Positions 1 to 5,597 of a stretch of DNA of 64,000 nucleotides are shown here, piece after piece. Position numbers and translations under genes: made by a program. Each line of letters opens with the position of its first letter. Positions within the stretch are counted from its first letter, which is position 1. The DNA comes from Lentilactobacillus parabuchneri DSM 5707 = NBRC 107865 (lineage in GTDB: Bacteria; Bacillota; Bacilli; Lactobacillales; Lactobacillaceae). The notes beneath the pieces are model-generated. The model had not been told where the DNA came from and searched no databases. It saw nothing but the letters and a program-made list of their open reading frames with translations. The stretch lies in NCBI RefSeq assembly GCF_001435315.1, contig NZ_AZGK01000002.1, positions 200,763-264,762 of the forward strand, given 5' to 3'.

Positions 1-507
1 GTATTTTTCAACCAACGGAACATGATCTTCATCCATGACTTCAGTCAAAACGTCCATATCAAATGCATCTGCGGCCGCTCTGAGAAATTTCAAACCATCC
101 TCGCCTAATCCTTGGAATGAGTATGGGGAAGTCCGTGGTTTGAAGGCCCCACCACGTAATACAGTCGCGCCGCCGCTCTTGGCAACCTTGGCCATCTTCA
201 TAACATGTTCAGCCGATTCAACGGAACATGGGCCAGCCATCATTGTAAAATGATCGCCGCCAATGACACTGTGCGGTGTGGTGACAACCGTATCTTCAGG
301 GTGGAATAATCGACTGCCCTGAACAGCGGCTGGCACGTTATCAATAATCAAGTCAATTGCGGCTTTTTCTTCAGCATTCAGGTCTTTTTCACTGACACCC
401 TGAAGGGCAACTCGATTGTTGTGAACAAAAACCTCGTTCGTATCGGTGAAGCGATTCTTAATTTCGTCAATAATATTTTCGTGTCCGTTCTTAATTACAA
501 TAATCAT
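1..507 (-). CDS. aroF: 3-deoxy-7-phosphoheptulonate (DAHP) synthase, N-terminal part
   Basis: The minus strand from position 507 encodes 169 codons that run off the window, starting MIIVIKNGHENIID. The product condenses phosphoenolpyruvate with erythrose 4-phosphate, the first step of the shikimate pathway to aromatic amino acids. Residues 1-70 resemble the small ferredoxin-like N-terminal extension of Bacillus-type (AroA-beta) enzymes. The barrel then begins with GGDHFTMMAGPCSVES and GGAFKPRTSPYSFQG, both hallmarks of the family. AAAGGAGA sits 7 bases before the ATG. The gene is preceded on the same strand by an attenuator with an aromatic-rich leader peptide, so it is probably controlled by aromatic amino-acid supply. 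The C-terminus is missing only because the window ends. The assignment is firm; whether a chorismate mutase is fused cannot be seen. Confidence 0.93.
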   Translation of the reverse strand, partial: MIIVIKNGHENIIDEIKNRFTDTNEVFVHNNRVALQGVSEKDLNAEEKAAIDLIIDNVPAAVQGSRLFHPEDTVVTTPHSVIGGDHFTMMAGPCSVESAEHVMKMAKVAKSGGATVLRGGAFKPRTSPYSFQGLGEDGLKFLRAAADAFDMDVLTEVMDEDHVPLVEKY

Positions 508-546
508 AGTATGATCTCCTTTGTGTGTTTGCCCAAGTTATAAATA

Positions 547-586
547 AAATAAAACTCCCGCAGCGTATATAACACTGCGGGAGTCA
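547..586 (-). terminator. Attenuator terminator before aroF
   Basis: Read on the minus strand, ACTCCCGCAG (584-575) pairs perfectly with CTGCGGGAGT (563-554) across an 11-base loop and is followed by a T-rich tract. The 5' arm is also complementary to ACTGCGGGA at about 609-617, an alternative antiterminator pairing. A third hairpin at 607-641 (GGTC with GACC, CAGT with ACTG, ATTTT with AAAAT) would hide that antiterminator strand. Mutually exclusive hairpins ending in a terminator are the mark of transcription attenuation. Confidence 0.85.
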
Positions 587-718
587 GAATTTTGGGTAAA
601 AAAATTGGTCCCGCAGTATTTTGGAAAATAACTGTGTGACCGAAGTAAGTAATCATGATGAACTACTATTGGCCGCACAGGATGTGAGGAAGTGCCCACA
701 TCCTGTCCGGTGTGAACA

Positions 719-772
719 CTAAGCGTACCAATAGTAATAAAATCGATTAATTTTTGAATTAATTTTTATCAT
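719..772 (-). CDS. Aromatic-rich leader peptide of the aroF attenuator
   Basis: A 17-residue ORF on the minus strand encodes MIKINSKINRFYYYWYA, with six consecutive aromatic codons (Phe, Tyr, Tyr, Tyr, Trp, Tyr) just before the stop. TAGGAGA lies 8 bases before the ATG. The Tyr-Tyr-Trp codons (TACTATTGG) are exactly complementary to CCAATAGTA about 75 bases downstream (plus-strand 664-672). A 10-bp hairpin (ACAGGATGTG with CACATCCTGT) lies between the two. A ribosome stalled on these codons would block that pairing and shift the later terminator/antiterminator balance. This is the design of ribosome-mediated attenuators such as trpL and pheL. The peptide itself probably has no other job. The ORF and its complementarity are seen directly; the mechanism is inferred. 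Confidence 0.85.
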   Translation of the reverse strand: MIKINSKINRFYYYWYA

Positions 773-929
773 GATTAGAGTCTCCTAAGAAAGTTAAATT
801 TTAATTGCATAGAGCATATAATGAATTCCAGAAAGTGTCAACCCCAAACTTTGATATTTTAATTTTCTTGACATTTTCTCATAATGAGCGTAATTTAAAT
901 GACAATTAAATATCCGTCCAAAATAAACC

Positions 930-1218
930 GTTGAAGTGGAGATCAAGATTGTTGTGCACGTTAAGAGAGTCGCTATCGCTGAGAATGCGGCCGAACGCAG
1001 GCAGTTAAATGGACCACTGAGGGTTCTTCCGAATCAAAGTACGAAGAAACGTGTTGGTATACGTCAGTTACCGGAGGGATGTTGGTCCCTTGCTAAGCGT
1101 GATTAATTGGCAGATAGACTGTAGTTAAGGCTGTCTGTGCCAATCAATCAAATGAAGGTGGCACCGCGGAAAATCCGTCCTTTACAAACAATTGGTTTGT
1201 GATGGGCGGATTTTTTTA
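930..1218 (+). promoter_or_regulatory. T-box riboswitch (tryptophan) upstream of trpEG
   Basis: The leader carries the T-box sequence AGGTGGCACCGCGG at 1156-1169. A terminator follows at about 1173-1217 (ATCCGTCC with GGGCGGAT, then seven T). Stem I begins with AGAGAG (964-969). A TGG triplet followed by ACC at 1010-1012 fits a tryptophan specifier codon. The bulge reads UGGC, which would pair with a tRNA ending GCCA, as expected for bacterial tRNA-Trp with G73. Uncharged tRNA-Trp would therefore promote read-through into trpE and trpG. The element class is firm and the specifier is inferred. Confidence 0.93.
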
Positions 1219-1240: not shown

Positions 1241-1282
1241 ATGAAAACAGTAGGAAAACGATGGCAATTCCAACGTTGTTAA
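1241..1282 (+). CDS. Possible 13-residue small ORF between T-box and trpE
   Basis: A short ORF encodes MKTVGKRWQFQRC, preceded by GGAGGG at 1229-1234 (7 bases before the ATG). It begins just after the T-box terminator and ends 36 bases before the trpE start. It holds a single Trp codon, so it is a weak candidate for a second attenuation peptide. It may instead be a translated mini-ORF that keeps ribosomes near the trpE start, or chance. No family is recognised. Confidence 0.35.
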   Translation: MKTVGKRWQFQRC

Positions 1283-5386: not shown

Positions 5387-5435
5387 AGCATAAAAAGTTG
5401 GTTAACTGATTATCTATTAGCTCACAAAAAAGTTT

Positions 5436-5512
5436 TCGTTCTTCCTTCGACAGTCCTAACTGCATCAGGTTCAATGGGTTTTATCTCAGCCATACGGCAC
5501 CCCAGACTACTT
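5436..5512 (-). promoter_or_regulatory. TPP riboswitch (THI element)
   Basis: The minus strand carries the conserved THI-box blocks in order: GGGGTGCC, GGCTGAGAT, ACCC, TTGAACCTGATGCAGTTAG and CGAAGGAA. The terminator at 5343-5386 is the likely output, so high thiamine pyrophosphate would shut off the downstream hydrolase and ykoE genes. The match is essentially complete. Confidence 0.96.
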
Positions 5513-5597
5513 TATTCAATTCGTCAATGAACTACTTGACAGCCTTAATGATATAACGATTTGCCAAAATGTCAAAACAATTTTCAATGACCTGCAG

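What the first reader, a model, noticed from the sequence alone, without database searches (positions are those of the whole stretch)
547..772. Aromatic-rich leader peptide and multi-hairpin attenuator controlling DAHP synthase
Seen: a 17-codon ORF with a good ribosome site ends in Phe-Tyr-Tyr-Tyr-Trp-Tyr-Ala. Its Tyr-Tyr-Trp codons are exactly complementary to a downstream strand, and a terminator, an antiterminator and a hairpin hiding the antiterminator follow before aroF. Known: ribosome stalling on codon runs drives trp, phe and his attenuators in enterobacteria, while Firmicutes mostly use T-boxes or TRAP. Inference: this leader senses all three aromatic amino acids at once, so general aromatic starvation would raise entry into the shikimate pathway. 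It lies divergently from a Trp T-box on trpEG, so two different RNA mechanisms sense related amino acids from one intergenic region.
Basis: partly seen in the sequence, partly recalled or inferred. Interest (0 to 1): 0.78.

Follow-up and report, generated by a model that had tools for sequence, protein, structure and literature searches.

The report
Aromatic leader-peptide attenuator before aroF
Upstream of the first gene of aromatic amino acid synthesis in a Lentilactobacillus, a 17-residue peptide rich in tyrosine codons and a chain of seven alternately pairing RNA strands appear to let a stalled ribosome switch the gene on when aromatic amino acids run short, and the same device recurs in many other lactobacilli.

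Summary
The minus-strand leader (772-719, MIKINSKINRFYYYWYA) has a promoter-like site, a ribosome site and a terminator before aroF. All 19 other Lentilactobacillus AroF loci examined carry a counterpart (one on a truncated stretch), and it recurs before aroF or its operon in 13 further genera. The codon run pairs with a downstream strand that covaries with it, Tyr wobble positions included. Seven later strands form a relay in which adjacent pairs covary between genera (0/2000 permutations) and none of 13 tested non-adjacent pairs does. Strand 1 overlaps the leader's stop codon. Proposed: a ribosome stalled on Phe/Tyr codons masks the run but leaves strand 1 free, giving 1:2, 3:4, 5:6 and read-through; at the stop codon it masks strand 1, giving 2:3, 4:5, 6:7 and termination. 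A covariance model hits 103 of 397 Lactobacillaceae genomes; a compact relative precedes an aminotransferase gene, also in this genome. Equilibrium folding shows the switch in about half of 51 leaders and barely in the window itself, so folding during transcription is assumed. No expression data.

The parts
813..841 (-). Promoter-like TTGACA-17-TATGCT of the leader transcript
   Evidence: Consensus scan, 10 of 12 matches; not tested experimentally
782..786 (-). Shine-Dalgarno AGGAG of the leader peptide; with the start codon it forms strand S
   Evidence: Sequence; SD-like sites in relatives (the 53 leaders were selected for one)
719..772 (-). Leader ORF, 17 codons, MIKINSKINRFYYYWYA
   Evidence: counterparts
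728..737 (-). Strand A, codon run TTACTATTGG (Tyr-Tyr-Trp); the Phe/Tyr/Trp run spans 742-725
   Evidence: Pairs with 672-663; 8 of 10 pairs show a change on both sides among 50 distinct rows, the two outermost pairs (columns 18/105, 19/104) are mostly unpaired in relatives
712..720 (-). Strand 1, overlaps the stop codon (721-719), pairs with strand 2
   Evidence: Fold -15.1 kcal/mol for 720-691; covariation
691..706 (-). Strand 2, pairs with strand 1 or with strand 3
663..686 (-). Strand 3 including strand B (672-663); pairs with strand 2 plus the codon run, or with strand 4
649..660 (-). Strand B', complementary to the leader's own SD/start region
   Evidence: Own better than foreign partners, 0/2000 permutations, better in 11 of 14 genera
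631..641 (-). Strand 4 (C), 5' arm of the hairpin that hides the antiterminator
607..617 (-). Strand 5 (D), antiterminator strand; 4:5 is followed by a U-tract at 604-598 (possible first terminator)
572..585 (-). Strand 6 (E), 5' arm of the main terminator, also partner of strand 5
546..566 (-). Strand 7 (F, 566-553) and U-rich tail of the main terminator
1..507 (-). aroF (DAHP synthase), start 507, runs off the window; 338 aa; an aroB-like gene follows outside the window (named by eye)
922..1185 (+). T-box leader of the diverging trpE-trpG-like pair
   Evidence: Rfam RF00230, 82.4 bits, below gathering score

Best explanation
It is a ribosome-mediated transcription attenuator of aroF, a member of a family spread through Lactobacillaceae. 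Translation of the leader reads out charging of tyrosine tRNA, with phenylalanine and perhaps tryptophan. SHOWN by sequence comparison: the conserved aromatic run near the peptide's end, its pairing with strand B, and a relay of strands 1 to 7 in which each inner strand can pair with either neighbour. INFERRED: (i) with enough charged tRNA the ribosome reaches the stop codon and covers strand 1, so 2:3, 4:5 and the terminator 6:7 form; (ii) without translation, A:B, 2:3 and S:B' form one long stem with the same result; (iii) a ribosome stalled on the Phe/Tyr codons covers A, blocking A:B, but leaves strand 1 free, so 1:2 forms, strand 3 captures strand 4, strand 5 captures strand 6, and RNA polymerase reads into aroF. 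Where a U-tract follows strand 5, as here, one stall could disarm two terminators in series. The order of events during transcription is assumed, because at equilibrium the termination fold is the more stable one.
For: Leader found at 19 of 19 other Lentilactobacillus AroF loci (L096, on a stretch cut by its contig end and read from a TTG, was dropped later, though the model also hits it, G020). Leaders upstream of aroF or of its operon in 13 other genera by ORF scan and in more by covariance model. Swap test on 53 leaders, 14 genera: six adjacent strand pairs plus A:B and S:B' are better with own than foreign partners, 0/2000 genus permutations each; 13 non-adjacent controls gave 152 to 1961 of 2000. 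6:7 is so by construction, since E and F were picked as a hairpin, and the strand windows were set after looking at the sequences. Alignment of 51 (50 distinct) rows: termination helices have 25 of 31 pairs with a change on both sides, covariation 0.405 against at most 0.083 when slid; antitermination helices 13 of 19 (11 of 500 shuffles reach that count, 0 of 500 the covariation score), 0.300 against at most 0.126 when slid. The third base of the last Tyr codon covaries with strand B: columns 24/98 read UA 40, CG 10, none unpaired. Terminator-like hairpin with U-tract found in 53 of 53 (permissive search, no shuffle control). Ribosome-position modelling without upstream RNA, with strand 4 just made: strand 3 has left strand 2 for strand 4 in 21-28 of 51 leaders when the A site holds one of the five codons before Trp, in 7-11 of 51 further upstream, 11 of 51 on Trp and none at the stop (footprint P+16; similar peaks for three other footprints). 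In 8 of 10 compact aminotransferase leaders a strand over the stop codon pairs with strand C better than 188 of 200 shuffles or more.
Against: No expression, Term-seq or ribosome data. In the window itself the equilibrium model gives little switch: with the ribosome on the Tyr codons 1:2 reaches only 1.7-3.1 and 3:4 2.5-3.7 expected pairs while 2:3 keeps 7.4-8.6, and 3:4 is 4.6 at the stop. With upstream RNA included there is no clear peak: 0.18-0.22 of 51 leaders in the run against 0.12-0.29 on codons further upstream, 0.1 or less from Trp on. Once strand 5 is made the termination fold dominates. Pairing 3:4 is weakly supported (own -10.3 against -8.1 in the narrow window; better in 12 of 14 genera) with one mismatch in the window. 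S:B' is not better in 3 of 14 genera. One control, 3:5, comes near (152 of 2000). A U-tract after strand 5 is present in only 27 of 53. Several genera with AroF have no model hit (g4, g10, g18, g19, g25).
Confidence: 0.87

Rival explanations
1. Nascent-peptide arrest: the aromatic peptide itself blocks the ribosome in response to a free small molecule (TnaC-like, recalled), rather than uncharged tRNA at codons.
For: The end of the peptide is conserved while the start varies; stalling by peptide would act on the same RNA relay.
Against: Residues swap within the aromatic class: FYYYW, FSYYW, SYYFW, FYSYW, RYYW, and Trp is replaced by Gln in 3 leaders; related leaders read RYYYFWFF, CRYYFWFF, NYFYFWYF, TTFFFGFF. 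Wobble bases covary with strand B, which a pure peptide signal would not need.
Confidence: 0.07
2. The leader ORF senses general slow translation; the aromatic run is only the 5' pairing strand that happens to be coding.
For: The run is also strand A and must pair with B; any ribosome parked there would do.
Against: Pairing needs no aromatic codons, yet 53 of 53 leaders keep at least two Tyr codons and related leaders in front of other genes have aromatic runs of different order. Modelled productive positions coincide with the run.
Confidence: 0.06
3. The terminator and hairpins only insulate or fix a basal level of aroF; the ORF is a by-product.
For: No expression data; equilibrium folding of the longer RNA favours the termination fold in both ribosome states modelled.
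Against: Covariation of the mutually exclusive antitermination helices 1:2 and 3:4 and of 5:6 has no role in a constant terminator; shuffled regions make such an ORF in 8 of 5300 trials.
Confidence: 0.03
4. Ribosome attenuator, but with simpler logic (a sub-variant of the best explanation, not exclusive of its class): A:B alone is the switch, strand B released by the stall pairs with strand 4, and strands 1 and 2 only shape the stem.
For: A:B and 3:4 both covary; strand B is contiguous with strand 3.
Against: 1:2 covaries as strongly as 2:3 (own -17.0 against -9.4; better in 14 of 14 genera) although it excludes 2:3. With strand 1 masked by a ribosome at the stop codon, strand 3 left strand 2 for strand 4 in none of 51 leaders at footprint P+16, although A is masked as well there.
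Confidence: 0.2

Closest known systems
Enterobacterial his/phe/trp ribosome-mediated attenuators (recalled)
   Same: Leader peptide with codons for the end product, mutually exclusive hairpins, intrinsic terminator; the his attenuator also chains several strands.
   Different: Different lineage; seven strands after the run plus A:B and S:B'; the proposed switch strand overlaps the stop codon; mixed aromatic run; often a possible second terminator; stands before the common pathway's first step.
uORFC-13-1 motif, Acholeplasma aroF (PMC8632094, passages and section 26 read)
   Same: uORF upstream of the same gene, just upstream of an apparent intrinsic terminator, proposed to work through the speed of Phe incorporation; 24 representatives.
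   Different: Described only in Acholeplasma and environmental sequences. My own loose scan saw an aromatic ORF (AYYYFYQM; SYTYYYFR) at 2 of 4 Acholeplasma-type aroF loci (1 of 4 by the stricter scan). No relation of structure was tested.
His leader-peptide attenuators in Firmicutes (PMC9413887 and PMC2965389, passages read)
   Same: Amino-acid-specific leader peptides in Firmicutes in place of T-boxes; his operon and hisS/hisZ genes.
   Different: Histidine codons; B. cereus group and other bacilli, Peptostreptococcaceae, Erysipelotrichales. The passages read describe T-boxes, not leader peptides, for Lactobacillales his genes.
T-box leaders (Rfam RF00230)
   Same: A common Firmicute answer to the same signal; present on the other strand here and before aroF in one relative (L141, 68.3 bits, below gathering score).
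   Different: No T-box match on this leader: the minus-strand matches up to E 5 were unrelated families at chance level. Sensing would be by ribosome, not by RNA binding tRNA.

Membership tests
Ribosome-mediated (leader-peptide) transcription attenuator | Short ORF with SD and a run of codons for the pathway's products | tested here: met
Ribosome-mediated (leader-peptide) transcription attenuator | Codon run pairs with a downstream strand, conserved by compensation | tested here: met
   Helix 1: 8 of 10 pairs with a change on both sides
Ribosome-mediated (leader-peptide) transcription attenuator | Mutually exclusive terminator and antiterminator before the gene | tested here: met
Ribosome-mediated (leader-peptide) transcription attenuator | Modelled ribosome position on the run favours the antiterminator side | tested here: inconclusive
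   Yes in about half of 51 leaders without upstream RNA; weak in the window itself and no clear peak with upstream RNA
Ribosome-mediated (leader-peptide) transcription attenuator | Leader is translated and read-through rises on starvation for the coded amino acid | not testable with these tools
   Needs reporter or ribosome profiling data
T-box riboswitch | Covariance-model match to RF00230 | tested here: not met
   No T-box match on the minus strand; the plus-strand match belongs to trpE
uORFC-13-1 (Acholeplasma aroF) | Shared consensus sequence and structure | not tested
   The published consensus is a figure, not held; only leader ORFs of 4 Acholeplasma-type loci were looked at
Any Rfam 15 family | Match to the leader | tested here: not met
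   None on the window's leader; none overlapping a leader in 40 fetched stretches searched at E 0.01, 24 of which hold a leader by the ORF scan

The most novel reading that the evidence does not exclude
A family-wide aromatic regulon of leader-peptide attenuators in Lactobacillaceae, covering the shikimate entry genes, an aminotransferase and perhaps transporters, in which the strand over the stop codon is the ribosome-read switch and strands are added or removed in pairs (seven in aro leaders, five in the compact aminotransferase leaders) so that starvation always means read-through; in about half of the aro leaders one stalled ribosome disarms two terminators in series. Tyr, with Phe, is the signal for the common pathway, while Trp is left to the neighbouring T-box.
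Probability: 0.5. Interest if true: 0.72.

Novelty: new variant of a known kind. Interest (0 to 1): 0.62.

Why it matters
Leader-peptide attenuation is textbook for enterobacteria but little described in Firmicutes, where T-boxes are the expected answer (PMC2965389, passages, says as much for 2010). This gives a large comparative family in lactobacilli, with a relay longer than the textbook ones and a relative that suggests how such relays are rebuilt. It predicts how lactobacilli tune aromatic amino acid supply and an aminotransferase that may start aromatic flavour and phenyl-lactate metabolism (that role is recalled, not tested). It makes testable which aromatic amino acid is read, and why one intergenic region carries two different RNA sensors.

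Tried and rejected
Rfam as a ready answer: no family on the leader. Plain MFE folding to see the switch: of the printed part it gave the termination-side hairpins whatever the ribosome position in the window (the output was cut). The first ORF scan found no leader in Secundilactobacillus (g20) and others, because aroF is there inside an operon behind aroE and/or tkt; looking further upstream found it. Position-free complementarity to the codon run was only weakly above shuffles in many single leaders; fixed position and covariation are what count. RNAalifold alone returned only A:B and 2:3. Modelling with upstream RNA went against a clear switch and is reported. The first criterion for a switch demanded 1:2 and was therefore zero at the stop codon by definition; I replaced it by one that does not use strand 1 (there 8 leaders were counted twice in the stop row, shown as 59). 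The X:C test did not beat shuffles in 4 of 12 related leaders (L287, L289, L291, L292; 111-175 of 200 shuffles as good), so their wiring is open; the later strands of the compact type were only looked at by eye in the folds. In this genome, of 52 sites of a Trp-centred aromatic codon pattern, 30 were inspected and only the two known leaders had an SD-preceded short ORF; the other 22 were not inspected. Leaders of genus g16 have weak SDs and were missed by the ORF scan in the one stretch tried (L232) but found by model.

Literature: nine full-text searches. I judged the listings by title and start of abstract, and saw none that describes an aromatic leader peptide in lactobacilli; the library holds only open-licence papers. 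Seen further: passages of PMC9413887 and PMC2965389, passages and section 26 of PMC8632094, a term search of PMC3616900 with no occurrences. A T-box survey of 2008 is not held.

Full report
WHAT IS THERE. The window belongs to a genome whose nearest named relative by AroF is Lentilactobacillus otakiensis (94%; the window's own record may be left out there). On the minus strand a promoter-like site (841-813) precedes a 17-codon ORF (772-719) with AGGAG as ribosome site, reading MIKINSKINRFYYYWYA. A strong terminator (585-553, -25.4 kcal/mol) lies just before aroF (start 507), a DAHP synthase by NCBIfam, followed by an aroB-like gene (named by eye). The leader RNA folds with z -9.4. On the plus strand a T-box precedes trpE/trpG-like genes (the best trpE model scores 400.7 bits, below its cut-off of 517.7).

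CONSERVATION OF THE PEPTIDE. AroF is in 20 of 24 genomes of the genus, the window's included. The upstream stretches of the other 19 loci all hold a short aromatic ORF at the corresponding place (L096 is cut by its contig end and was dropped later). In the family 148 of 397 genomes have AroF at E 1e-60 or better, 128 of them outside the genus; I fetched upstream stretches of 100 loci from 99 of these. Directly upstream of aroF the scan found the leader in g6 4 of 4, g32 2 of 2 and g2 3 of 3. In many others aroF is an inner gene behind aroE and/or tkt. For 28 of those genomes I took stretches further upstream (40 stretches) and the ORF scan found the leader in 25: g20 5 of 5, g3 6 of 6, g38 4 of 4, g30 3 of 3, g33 2 of 2 and g24, g15, g22, g12, g13 one of one each; not in g10, g16 and g25, one each. 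The rest of the 99 genomes were not followed upstream. Named examples: Lentilactobacillus otakiensis, Lentilactobacillus sp. Marseille-Q4993, Secundilactobacillus hailunensis, Ligilactobacillus ruminis (4 leaders at 9 named Lactobacillaceae loci scanned over 3 kb or less; of the five misses L004 is a second aroF copy and L007's stretch ends just short of the model hit, the others were not pursued).

THE RUN. The first half of the peptide varies freely; the end keeps a run such as FYYYW, FSYYW, SYYFW or FYSYW. At least two Tyr codons in 53 of 53, Trp in 50, all three aromatic residues within the last nine codons in 49. The 53 are the window, 18 of the 19 genus loci and 34 others, from 14 genera.

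THE RELAY. One search suggested, and searches tested, a chain of strands: 1 (over the stop codon), 2, 3, 4, 5, 6, 7. For each pair I compared the duplex energy of a genus's own strands with strands of other genera (53 leaders, 14 genera). Own mean against foreign mean: A:B -12.8/-8.5; S:B' -8.3/-5.4; 1:2 -17.0/-9.4; 2:3 -17.3/-9.7; 3:4 -10.3/-8.1 (wide window -14.8/-11.4); 4:5 -16.5/-11.6; 5:6 -12.5/-8.4; 6:7 -21.8/-8.1, the last by construction. None of 2000 genus permutations reached the own value in any of these; 13 non-adjacent pairs gave 152 (3:5) to 1961 of 2000 (not every possible pair was tried, and the windows were set after seeing the sequences). On an alignment of 51 leaders (two divergent ones, g12 and g13, left out) both sets of helices, which exclude each other, show compensatory changes far above slid controls; for the antitermination set the counts of pairs and of pair types are reached by 11 and 6 of 500 shuffles, the other three measures by none. 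In 10 of 50 distinct rows the third base of the last Tyr codon changes together with strand B and no row breaks that pair (columns 24/98).

TERMINATORS. A terminator-like hairpin 6:7 with U-tract was found in 53 of 53 by a permissive search. Directly after strand 5 at least 6 U in 8 bases occur in 27 of 53, the window among them, so hairpin 4:5 may be a first terminator.

HOW IT LIKELY WORKS. Inferred: see the best explanation. The geometry fits: in the window a ribosome with the first Tyr codon in its A site ends eight or nine bases before the end of the stop codon and covers strand A; at the stop codon it covers strand 1 (footprint assumed to P+15). With strand 4 just made and only RNA downstream of the ribosome considered, strand 3 leaves strand 2 for strand 4 (2:3 below 3 and 3:4 above 5 expected pairs) in 21, 26, 25, 28 and 23 of 51 leaders for the five codons before Trp, in 11 on Trp, in 7 to 11 further upstream, and in none at the stop; mean 2:3/3:4 pairs are 3.6-4.9/6.1-7.8 in the run and 9.6/3.9 at the stop. 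Changing the footprint by two to four bases shifts the peak by about a codon each way, so whether Trp counts is not settled. Against this: in the window alone the shift is weak; with upstream RNA included there is no clear peak over codons further upstream; and RNA that includes strand 5 prefers the termination fold. The switch must therefore act during transcription, with the leader's start region occupied by ribosomes; both are assumptions.

DISTRIBUTION. A covariance model of the leader (R1) finds one strong site in this genome (130.5 bits) and two weak ones (24.9 and 19.6 bits), 103 of 397 family genomes in 20 of 40 genera at E 0.05, and 13 of 395 genomes (6 of 80 genera) of the order, all in the same family (strict filters in both). 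Genera g4, g10, g18, g19 and g25 have AroF but no hit; one relative has a T-box there instead (L141, g34).

A REGULON. One weak hit in this genome is a second leader: it precedes a class I/II aminotransferase (L242: MSGNLNIQMNSCRYYFWFFRV; Pfam PF00155; best NCBIfam model NF005588 below its cut-off). A model built from nine such leaders (R2) hits 98 of 397 genomes in 14 genera at E 0.01, some hits being the aro leaders themselves, the window's included at 30.8 bits. Of its 30 best loci all 30 have the aromatic leader and 29 show the aminotransferase motif downstream. That the enzyme acts on aromatic amino acids is inferred from the leader and from recalled kin. Single cases precede aroC (L250; NCBIfam over cut-off), a PTS_EIIC_2-type membrane protein (L287) and an ABC substrate-binding protein with a Phe-only run (L292, TTFFFGFFG), and an MFS-like protein named by eye (L288). 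In 8 of 10 aminotransferase leaders tested, and in neither of two others, the strand over the stop codon pairs straight with strand C (12 or fewer of 200 shuffles as good). Read with the folds by eye, this is a five-strand version with the same parity.

KNOWN OR NEW. Attenuation by leader peptides is known; Firmicute examples in the passages I read are histidine leaders (PMC9413887, PMC2965389) and the Acholeplasma aroF motif (PMC8632094). No Rfam 15 family matches the leader, and nine searches of an open-licence library listed no description of this one in lactobacilli (judged by title and abstract start). I rate it a new variant of a known kind.

Noticed in passing
window 1241-1282 (+): Short ORF MKTVGKRWQFQRC with a good SD between the T-box terminator and trpE; a [KR]RWQ-bearing frame was seen in 10 of 18 genus stretches (window included) that hold the T-box core. 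It may be a second, single-Trp control element of trpE.
   Followed up: partly
window 5425-5514 (-): TPP riboswitch (64.6 bits) upstream of two minus-strand genes that look like a peptidase-type deacylase and a small membrane protein (named by eye), perhaps thiamine precursor uptake.
   Followed up: no
L022 and L014, upstream of aroF: Two of 4 Acholeplasma-type aroF loci carry short ORFs with Tyr/Phe runs (AYYYFYQM, SYTYYYFR), where the published uORFC-13-1 text mentions at least one Phe codon.
   Followed up: partly
L141 300-497: A T-box (68.3 bits, below gathering score) stands before aroF in one relative (g34) where others have the leader peptide: a swap of sensors.
   Followed up: no
L104/L203 and L114 (G292): One genome of g20 has two aroF copies about 11 kb apart; a leader was found only for the one behind aroE, none in the 0.9 kb before the other.
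   Followed up: no
L292: ABC substrate-binding gene preceded by a leader ORF ending TTFFFGFFG, which suggests a phenylalanine-specific version.
   Followed up: partly
L227 833-931 (-): Azaaromatic (yjdF) riboswitch on the opposite strand upstream of a tkt operon with the aromatic leader.
   Followed up: no
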